This document shows positions 60,750 to 64,000 of a stretch of 64,000 nucleotides of DNA, piece by piece. The position numbers and the translations under genes are program-made. Position 1 is the stretch's first letter, and every line of letters begins with the position of its first letter. The notes under the pieces were generated by a model. It did no database searches. It saw nothing but the letters and a program-made list of their open reading frames with translations, and was not told the DNA's origin. The DNA is from Geranomyces variabilis (taxonomy: Eukaryota > Chytridiomycota > Chytridiomycetes > Spizellomycetales > Powellomycetaceae). The DNA lies in assembly GCA_027603065.1 (NCBI GenBank), contig JADGJP010000023.1:347230-411229 (forward strand). Direction: 5' to 3'.

Positions 60750-60914
60750 GATAACGAATAAAGTGGTGAACGGTAACTAGTTGAGATGAGGAGTGGTTGA
60801 TGTCGGCGAGCGAGCGGGTGATCTTGCGGTGTTGAGCGGAATTAACGTCACGGTCACAACTATTTAAGTCAGAGGAGTGCTTTTTGGCCAATCTTCGCGT
60901 CTAGTCAATCTCCG

Positions 60915-61029
60915 TCCACAGATTTTTCCACAAGTAGGAGTTGACATCAGAATGCTCGTTGGGATGAGCTCTATTGGTGACGGGGGTATCAAACAAGTAT
61001 AACTCGGATTGACAGAGTTATGACCTTCG
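60915..61029. repeat. Direct repeat element, copy A
   Basis: About 115 bases beginning CCACAGATTTTTCCACAAG and containing GGAGTTGA, AATGCT, CAAGTATA and TCGGA. It closely matches copy B about 159 bases downstream, with mismatches scattered evenly, so this is an old duplication. No coding frame is shared. Its position directly upstream of a transposon-related gene is suggestive. Confidence 0.75.
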
Positions 61030-61073
61030 GATGCCGGAATGTTGAAGCTGTTACTGCGGGCTCTCGTTCTCAG

Positions 61074-61200
61074 CCCACAGATTTTTCCACAAGTGGGAGT
61101 TGATGCCACAATGCTTGTGAGAACGAGGTTTATCTGTGGTGAGGATATCGTGCAAGTATAGCTCGGACTGATGGAGTTTAAGAGTTACGGCCTTGCCTTC
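61074..61200. repeat. Direct repeat element, copy B
   Basis: About 125 bases similar to copy A. It carries extra internal complementarity: CTCGTTCTCA (61063-61072) with TGAGAACGAG (61118-61127), and CCACAGA (61075-61081) with TCTGTGG (61133-61139). The two pairings cross rather than nest. Confidence 0.7.
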
Positions 61201-61465
61201 GCATTGAGTAAAGTCGCGTGCAACCGTGACTAAACTTGAACGCGCTTCGCACTCGCTGCACAGCACCCAACCATTCCCTCCTTTCTCACGCAGACATCTC
61301 TTTTTCTTGTGTCGCCCTCCTCTGCCTGCCTTTGCCCACTACGCTGCACGCCGCAGCATTCTGACTGTGCTGCTCTAAGGTAATTGTACATACTGGCAGC
61401 GCACTCCGCGCACAGCAGTGCCTAACTTTAGTTCCCTCCTTTCTGCAGCTTAATGCTTCACAGCC

Positions 61466-63421
61466 ATGTCTCGTCGCCGCCGCCACTCATTTAACCTACA
61501 ATCTCTTCCACGGACACCACCTCTCGGGTGGCCGCCGCCACCGCCCAGCAAGCGTCAACATTGGAATGAGGAAGCCGCCCGCCATGCTGCAATCTTTGTA
61601 GGAGACGCCAGTGCAATGCAGCTGGACGAGGCTGAGGTAGATGCTGGCGCACAGCTGAACGAGACTGAGGTGGACGCTGGCGCACAGCTGAACGAGACTG
61701 AGGTGGACGCTCACGCAATGGAGCTGGACGAGGTTGAAGAGGTGGATGCCCACGCAATGCAGCTGGACGAGGTTGAGGTGGACGCTTACAACGGCTTGCG
61801 ATGGTGTGCACCTCAGAGGTGGGCCAATTCACATGGCCCTCCACCGCCGCCACCGCTGCCGCCTGCTGAAAGAGCCAGGCGCTCGCCACCCAGCAACTAC
61901 GTGTGTGTCAAAGCATGTTTCGGTTCTATCATTCGCAACAACGAGGATGCTGCAGTGGCAAAGCTTAACGTCTTTTTGCGGCATATGCATCTTATCACTC
62001 AACGGGCGTCATGGATTATCAAGCTGTGGTATGCCAACATGCTACATCCGGAGGTACATGTTGCTGATTCAATTCAAAGCATTATTATGCATTGTATATT
62101 GACTTCTATCTTTTTTCAAATGCGCACAGATCTTGACAGACAATGATATCAAACATCTGCTGGATGCCCTCAATTTTAGTGAAGTCACTCGTGGCGGCAT
62201 CTTTCAAGCCACGCTAATTGAGTACGACGCCAACGTTGAAAACCTGACGGCGGGATCACAAGCAACATTGCCACGTGGCAACCTTTGAAATACGATTGCC
62301 TACACCGCTACCAGCTTGATTACAAACCTTGAAGTCAACATGTCCATCAACTTCATGAAGAAGTTGCGCCAATACGTTGAGCGCAGGTTTCGCATCAAGG
62401 CGATCTTGCGGGAATTCAACCACGTTACCAACAAAAGCATACGCGAGTTTCTGTGTAAACGTCTGCGGCGTCTTTTCAACTGGCTGTGGAGGCTGATTAC
62501 GAACCTAGATGTTCTCTCGGAGGATGAATTACCTGCTTTTGAACCGGCTTTCGAAACTACTTTCTTTGATATTTGGGGTAAGATCTGGAGCATCTTGCCA
62601 GATGATCCAAAACGCTTTGAGTTCAATCTTGCATATGCGGTGGCATGCGAGCCCGCAAAATACGTCGGCACATACTGAGCACTCTCTTGCTTGTGGCAAG
62701 CAGCGCAATTTCCAGCTCTCTTCTTGGCTATACCTGTTCGCACCAGCCATGTTCAATCATATGTCCCGATTGATACAACAACGCTCTTCTATGTTATAAC
62801 TCGCCCACCTGGGTATAGGAAGCTACTGTTCTCAAGTCCGGAGCAAAAGCGGGCACATTGGGATGTACTTTGTGACATCAGTCACAAGTCATTCCAAGAT
62901 CGCGGAAATTACAAGTTTTCAGGTATTGTGATTGACGCTGTCTACGTGCATACGTTACTGTCATACTAATTGCTAAACCTCTATTAGGAACCATCATGAC
63001 GGACGGCGTCGGTGTCTCGGTTGGACATGTTGACATGACCAAGGTCACCGTGACTACAAGGGGCCGTCCCATGATGCCAAAACCACGCAAAGTATCCAAG
63101 GCAGCTCAGCGTGCAGCGGTCAACAGGCTCTACATCGACACACCAGAAAATGCTGCGGTTATTCGTGACCGCATCTTGCATCCAGACCCCGATGCGCCGG
63201 TGATCCTCTGTGATCCGAATATCCGCGATATGCTGTATTTGAAAGAGTACGGCACCGGCACCAACAATATCATGCGGTACACACTCTTGCAGCAGAAGAA
63301 GGAAATGAAGGCTCGCGAGCGTGTTAAGGAGTGCAACAAGGACCGGCTCCGCAACTTGTCAGCACCAGGCAGTACTACGGGATCTTTAGAGGCGACAATG
63401 CCGGGGCACAAGTCAATGCTG
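61466..63421 (+). CDS. Fanzor (eukaryotic TnpB-like RNA-guided nuclease), 3' end outside window
   Basis: Fanzors are eukaryotic relatives of IS200/IS605 TnpB: RNA-guided RuvC nucleases spread by mobile elements. Exons fitted by frame are 61466-62053, 62130-62221, 62315-62577 (GTAAGA donor), 62704-62922, 62988-63421 (GTAAGT donor). The first exon encodes MSRRRRHSFNLQ, acidic 11-residue repeats and poly-Pro. The core begins NYVCVKACFGSII and continues with TNLEVNMSINFMKKLRQYVE and FPALFLAIPVRTSHVQSYVP, then IDTTTLFYV. The hallmark TDGVGVSVGHVDM follows near 62997, and the RuvC-I strand VILCDPNIRDML (catalytic Asp) near 63200. The basic helix LLQQKKEMKARERVKE follows. The remaining RuvC motifs and any guide-RNA region lie beyond an intron and the right edge. 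Frame stops at 62286 and 62676 fall inside inferred introns, so it need not be a pseudogene. Confidence 0.85.
61613..61789 (+). repeat. 33-nt coding tandem repeat in Fanzor exon 1
   Basis: About five imperfect copies of an 11-codon unit (for example GAQLNETEVDA, HAMELDEVEEVDA) give an acidic, Asp/Glu-rich repeat tract. Codon-level copies such as GCGCACAGCTGAACGAGACT at 61648 and 61681 are exact, so expansion is recent. The tract lies ahead of the conserved Fanzor core and probably tolerates length variation. Confidence 0.8.
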
Positions 63422-63430
63422 GTAAGTTAT

Positions 63431-63960
63431 AGCGGCGGTGGATGCTGAGATGCGCGGTGCAGATGTTGAGGTGCACGGCGGATGCTGAGATGCGTGATGC
63501 TGTGATGCGCGATGCCGCTGGTTTGCACGGTGGATGCTGTGATGCTGAAATGCGCGATGCTGTGATGCGCGATGCGCGATGCAGATGCTGGAGTGGGCGG
63601 ATGCTGTGATGCTGAGATGCGCGATGCAGATGCTGGAGTGGGCGGATGCTGTGATGCTGAAATGCGCGATGCTGTGATGCGCGATGCTGTGATGCGCGAT
63701 GCTGAAATGCTGTGATGCGCGGTGCCGCTGGATTGCATGGTGCATGCTGTGATGCTGAGATGCTGTGACTGTGATGCGCGATGCTGTGATGCGCGGTGCC
63801 GCTGGATTGCATGGTGCATGCTGTGATGCGGTGCTGATGTTGGAGTGCACGGCGGATGCTGTGATGCCGCTGGATTGCATGGTGGATGCTGTGACACGAT
63901 GCAGATGTTGGAGTGCACGGCGGATGCTGCGACGCGATGCGCGGTGCCAGTCTTCAACAT
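63431..63960. repeat. GATGC minisatellite in a Fanzor intron
   Basis: About 530 bases of tandem imperfect 12-15 nt units such as GATGCTGTGATGCGC and GATGCTGAGATGCGC, with interspersed GGTGCCGCTGGATTGCATGG and GCAGATGCTGGAGTGGGCGG segments that form a higher-order period of roughly 60-110 bases. It starts 10 bases after the GTAAGT donor that closes Fanzor exon 5. The minus-strand His/Ser/Ala-rich ORFs here are repeat artefacts. Confidence 0.9.
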
Positions 63961-63978
63961 CAGTCACCGGAAACTAAC

Positions 63979-64000
63979 TTTTTTTTTTTTTTTTTTTTTT
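63979..64000. other. Terminal poly(T) run at window edge
   Basis: At least 21 T residues end the window after GGAAACTAAC. They may be an intronic polypyrimidine tract, an assembly end or part of a retroelement tail, and cannot be resolved here. CTAAC followed by a T-run would suit a branch point and acceptor of the Fanzor intron. Confidence 0.6.

What the first reader, a model, noticed from the sequence alone, without database searches (positions are those of the whole stretch)
61466..63421. Intron-rich Fanzor RNA-guided nuclease gene in a zoosporic-fungus locus
Spliced frames give the Fanzor hallmark TDGVGVSV and a RuvC-I-like VILCDPNIRDML, plus a long coil-rich N-terminal core. Five exons keep frame without gaps. 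No IS607/IS605 transposase gene is visible next to it. Fanzors are known from chytrids (Spizellomyces), so the family is expected, but this copy has an unusual acidic repeat N-terminus and a repeat-filled intron. The DPN in place of the usual DPG at the RuvC-I Asp is also unusual.
Basis: partly seen in the sequence, partly recalled or inferred. Interest (0 to 1): 0.85.

Follow-up and report, generated by a model that had tools for sequence, protein, structure and literature searches.

The report
Broken copy of a repeated Fanzor
The end of this fungal contig holds a damaged, cut-off copy of a gene for a known kind of RNA-guided DNA-cutting enzyme, one of more than two dozen copies of what looks like a mobile element scattered through this chytrid genome.

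The parts
60890..61465 (+). 5' leader; stretches shared with other copies reach out to about 60890, block order differs between copies; the true 5' end of the element is not settled
61466..62053 (+). exon 1 (proline-rich start, acidic repeats 61619-61776, start of REC region)
62054..62129 (+). intron 1
   Evidence: GT 23/23, AG 20/23, lengths 72-92, 7 of 23 multiples of three
62286..62288 (+). in-frame TGA (CAA in 20, CGA in 2 other copies)
62676..62678 (+). in-frame TGA (TGC in 18, TGT in 2 other copies; C45e is cut before it and C46s interrupted)
62923..62987 (+). intron 2
   Evidence: GT 19/19, AG 17/19
62988..63421 (+). exon 3 (TDGVGVSV; RuvC-I Asp at 63212-63214, Asn at 63218-63220, positions read)
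63422..64000 (+). intron 3, GATGC-type minisatellite, cut by the contig end in its poly-T tract

Best explanation
It is a degenerate, contig-truncated copy of a multi-copy Fanzor1 element of Geranomyces variabilis. Complete copies have five exons and encode a 773-781 aa protein with the RuvC residues of Spizellomyces SpuFz1; a close relative is predicted to have its fold. Inferred mechanism, by analogy with SpuFz1: the last ~89 nt of the element (three hairpins) act as omega-RNA scaffold, the flank just outside the 3' end acts as guide, and the enzyme cuts the matching DNA, such as the empty donor or sister site, so that the element is copied back or kept. Shown here: family, predicted fold, catalytic residues, gene model by comparison, 3' terminus, copy number, stops in this copy. 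Inferred: RNA, guide, cleavage, mobility. This copy probably makes no working nuclease.
Against: No transcript or small RNA seen. Base-pair covariation is slight (by eye: one G-U to G-C change and one hairpin shortened on both sides), so the RNA rests mainly on conservation, which gene conversion could also give. The first Cys pair of the zinc finger is changed. The two stops could in principle be assembly errors.
Confidence: 0.88

Rival explanations
1. One reading: an intact gene whose extra introns 62222-62314 and 62578-62703 remove the stops.
For: GT/AG letters present in this copy and both stretches are codon multiples, so this copy could use them as exitron-like introns.
Against: Both splice sites are present in only 8 of 23 and 6 of 22 copies, lengths are codon multiples in 23 of 23 and 22 of 22, and the removed residues align with SpuFz1. 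Splicing would delete 31 and 42 residues.
Confidence: 0.04
2. The stops are sequencing or polishing errors near a contig end and the gene is intact up to the break.
For: Each stop is one or two base changes from the other copies and lies within 2 kb of a contig end.
Against: Several sister copies also carry stops or frameshifts, so decay is common in the family.
Confidence: 0.07
3. A subtelomeric gene family pointing at the telomere.
For: 20 of 27 loci with the N-terminal part lie at contig ends and point outward.
Against: Matching 3' halves lie at other contig ends pointing inward, 20 of 28 termini verified, and no Fanzor match or 46 lies beside a TTAGGG array.
Confidence: 0.01

Closest known systems
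SpuFz1 / SPu-1 of Spizellomyces punctatus (PDB 8gkh)
   Same: Fanzor1 protein, 28-29% identity in the structural alignments, DPN and E, D active site, tens of copies (42 loci in print, PMC10432273 section 7), noncoding right end of similar length (75-nt scaffold in print; about 89 nt conserved and folded here)
   Different: SPu-1 has a single ORF, 33-bp terminal inverted repeats and putative TA duplications (PMC3627910 passages); here five exons, mosaic 5' leader, no inverted repeat found, acidic repeats, an insert in the zinc-finger region. A TA duplication is not excluded: the 3' end finishes in TA in 22 of 23
PpFz1 of Parasitella parasitica (PDB 9cf0)
   Different: DPG instead of DPN; has an extra FRI domain (PMC11423790 passages)
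CRe-1/2/3 of Chlamydomonas (Fanzor1 in Helitron2-type elements; PMC3627910 passages)
   Same: multi-exon Fanzor1, intact 3' ends with subterminal hairpin, variable or truncated 5' ends
   Different: CRe elements share ends with known Helitrons; here no Helitron partner was found, and the 5' insertion site was not resolved

Membership tests
Fanzor1 | sequence match to characterised Fanzor1 proteins | tested here: met
   8gkh E 9.7e-62, 9cf0 5.9e-22; profile of 38 rows also hits GtFz1 7.7e-45
Fanzor1 | Fanzor1 fold | tested here: met
Fanzor1 | D-X(125,275)-[TS][TS]-X-X-[C4 finger]-X(5,50)-RD (PMC3627910 abstract) | tested here: met
   P0001 D529, T698-S699, four Cys 702/716/747/752 with unusual spacing, R772-D773; the window copy itself ends before the later parts
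Fanzor1 | canonical CPxC first Cys pair of the zinc finger (as in the six Spizellomyces rows) | tested here: inconclusive
   CPFV plus an insert with a new Cys in 4 of 4 Geranomyces rows; C at that position in 21 of 36 letters; zinc binding untested
Fanzor1 | omega-RNA from the right end with flank as guide | tested here: inconclusive
   conserved, folded 3' end; expression not testable here
Fanzor1 | RNA-guided DNA cleavage | not testable with these tools
   needs biochemistry
SPu-1 transposon type | terminal inverted repeats | tested here: not met
   no upstream match to the 3' end beyond the best of 30 shuffles in 23 leader sequences of 22 copies (three under 100 nt, one tie, C75); up to 1.8 kb upstream seen
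SPu-1 transposon type | TA target duplication | tested here: inconclusive
   words of 7 nt or more were sought at six copies and none fits; a 2-nt duplication would not show, as the 5' end is not settled
SPu-1 transposon type | single-ORF Fanzor gene | tested here: not met
   five exons in complete copies
Helitron-type element | 3' subterminal hairpin | tested here: met
   hairpin sequence in 28 of 28 termini, 3 of them with 1-2 changes
Helitron-type element | one-ended copies (5' truncation) | tested here: inconclusive
   mosaic leaders and one copy that begins at exon 4; contig breaks hide the rest
Helitron1 | CTRR-3' end | tested here: not met
   ends CTTGTA in 21 of 23, CTTGT in one, ATTGTA in one
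Helitron2 | 5' hairpin and asymmetric terminal inverted repeats | not tested
   5' end not settled
Helitron-type element | Rep/helicase partner | tested here: inconclusive
   PF14214: 0 in own genome, but the control rang nowhere either

The most novel reading that the evidence does not exclude
An intron-bearing Fanzor1 element without terminal inverted repeats or resident transposase, defined only by its 3' end, which spreads by a one-ended process. Either an unseen rolling-circle partner or the nuclease itself drives it, through breaks repaired from a sister copy with template switching, which would explain why the 3' RNA end is almost invariant and the 5' leaders are shuffled.
Probability: 0.15. 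Interest if true: 0.75.

Novelty: new member of a known kind. Interest (0 to 1): 0.36.

Why it matters
It adds a high-copy Fanzor1 family with at least two complete copies, and a carriage unlike that of the best-studied relative. Public gene models with the prefixes HDU88, HDU89, HDU90 and BDZ88 (and a more distant piece with HDU87) point to several assemblies of the species that carry it, so empty and filled sites could be compared to ask how Fanzor elements move. It also accounts for about 40 of the 182 contig ends of this assembly.

Tried and rejected
Subtelomeric location: looked strong at first (20 of 27 N-terminal loci at contig ends), rejected when the 3' halves turned up at other contig ends. 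Terminal inverted repeat: TACAAG near some 5' leaders looked like a repeat of the 3' end, but no score passed the best shuffle. Target duplications of 7 nt or more: none fits at six copies. Helitron partner by PF14214: none, inconclusive. Transposase beside the window copy: six open frames scanned with Pfam, none is one; smaller or spliced genes were not scanned. My first 3' terminus pattern was mistyped by one C and found one place only; corrected. First structure model had pLDDT 32 with 11 rows and was discarded for one with 38 rows. My first exon-4 boundaries were off by one base, corrected. Rfam: 0 matches in the window. In one search seven cut or rearranged copies were dropped before distances were taken (16 of 23 used); its 3'-end set of 23 holds many rows of only ~75 nt, and the script cut one row (C34b) at a wrong place, which raises the mean and the range, not the median much. 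One search used 9 of 23 copies, the window copy among them with its stop codons skipped. In one search the cut-out stretch of C34b and C20e did not begin at the start codon, and that of C5e did not translate from it, so no verdict is given for those three. The exact 5' end of the element was not settled.

Full report
Where it lies. The window is C16:347230-411229 of a 23.8-Mb, 91-contig genome, and 64000 is the last base of the contig. The nearest proteins are from Geranomyces variabilis; one of them, HDU88_007178, sits on a 125,427-bp contig, the length of contig C47 here, so the genome is very probably that assembly.

What the gene is. In the own genome 27 loci match its first 206 residues, the window included. 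I aligned 23 copies, the window copy among them. Introns 62054-62129 and 62923-62987 behave as introns: GT and AG together in 20 of 23 and 17 of 19 copies, with lengths mostly not multiples of three (7 of 23 and 3 of 19 are). The stretches 62222-62314 and 62578-62703 do not: lengths are multiples of three in 23 of 23 and 22 of 22 copies, both splice letters occur in 8 of 23 and 6 of 22, and an in-frame stop occurs in 2 of 23 (window, C67s) and 1 of 22 (window) (C46s, one of the 22, is interrupted in the second stretch). At the window's two stop codons the others have CAA (20) or CGA (2), and TGC (18) or TGT (2). SpuFz1, a single ORF in print (PMC10432273, section 7), aligns through both stretches with a complete sister copy. 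So the gene has three introns that begin within the window and a fourth further on, seen in sister copies, and the window copy has two nonsense codons.

Complete copies. Downstream exons were read in C45i, C34a, C78i and C34b (C34b lacks part of exon 4). C45i (773 aa) and C78i (781 aa) are open throughout, with GT and AG at the introns checked; C6s is open as far as assembled; C36s and C36e are open as far as assembled but each lacks one AG; C34a has one stop and the window copy two. Most other copies show stops, frameshifts or breaks in this reading; for C34b, C5e and C20e no verdict is given. Against C45i, SpuFz1 scores E 9.7e-62 over residues 87-758. Nine copies give a median dN/dS of 0.31 over 36 pairs in exons 2 and 3, with median dS 0.24: selection on the protein, and mostly not very recent copies.

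The element. The 3' terminus was found 28 times, 25 without mismatch to a 29-base pattern with two either-or positions, none for the reversed control. All 23 that I fetched (of 28) switch to different flanks right after CTTGTA, or after CTTGT in one and ATTGTA in another. The last stretch (75-115 nt per row) differs by a median 1.4% between copies, against medians of about 10, 12 and 22% in three introns (16, 16 and 4 copies). It folds into three hairpins, in two natural versions in which the middle hairpin is shortened on both sides. This fits an omega-RNA scaffold ending at the element boundary with the flank as guide, as in SpuFz1, but no RNA was seen, and gene conversion could also keep the end alike.

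Contig ends. 20 of 27 loci with N-terminal matches lie at contig ends and point outward. 20 of 28 3' termini lie at contig ends and point inward by recorded start or contig length; 2 more (C26, C30) I did not verify; 6 are internal. The assembly thus breaks inside the element. The TTAGGG arrays lie mostly at other contig ends.

Mobility. No inverted repeat of the 3' end was found upstream in 23 leader sequences from 22 copies (three shorter than 100 nt): none passed the best of 30 shuffles, one tied. No duplication of 7 nt or more fits at six copies; a 2-nt TA duplication, as reported for SPu-1, is not excluded and the 3' end does finish in TA in 22 of 23. No transposase domain appeared in six open frames beside the window copy, and no Helitron_like_N match in the genome (control silent). 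Leaders share blocks in different order; one copy (C16:287374-288183) begins at exon 4. This resembles the Chlamydomonas Fanzor1 elements described as one-ended Helitron2 (PMC3627910, passages) more than SPu-1, but a partner is missing, the canonical CTRR end of Helitron1 is absent, and the 5' end is not settled.

Literature. Searches. In one search, 54 papers held two of Geranomyces, Fanzor, TnpB; none of the 20 listed holds Geranomyces; the other 34 were not seen. Papers seen in part: PMC10432273 (section 7 and passages), PMC3627910, PMC10711439 and PMC11423790 (passages).

Verdict. A real Fanzor1 locus, but a decayed, truncated copy of a repeated element of a known kind. The open question worth work is how the family moves.

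Noticed in passing
L054 (C13:124023-126011, + strand): A 663-aa open frame, found once in the genome, joins an ING-type PHD finger (residues 257-312; ING4 1weu E 3.7e-10) to a TnpB/Cas12f-like C-terminal part (PF07282 18.4 bits, below the 26.3 cut-off) with DPGSR. C11 and C18 match it outside the finger. No held paper has both 'Fanzor' and 'PHD finger'. It could be a host-adopted nuclease relative that reads chromatin.
   Followed up: partly
starts of contigs C13, C67, C46 (L022, L042, L043): Three Fanzor copies are interrupted at different points by sequence that begins TGTGAGATGC on the gene strand, looking like the end of another mobile element.
   Followed up: no
C11:58426-58620 and C18:52793-52987: A second TnpB-like family with a C4 finger and, in C11, DPGSR; both over the PF07282 cut-off in the genome search.
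   Followed up: partly
P0013 (HDU88_007178, contig of 125427 bp): The public gene model seems to fuse a gene with LRR and CAP-Gly domains to Fanzor exons (Pfam accessions precomputed; domain names recalled).
   Followed up: no
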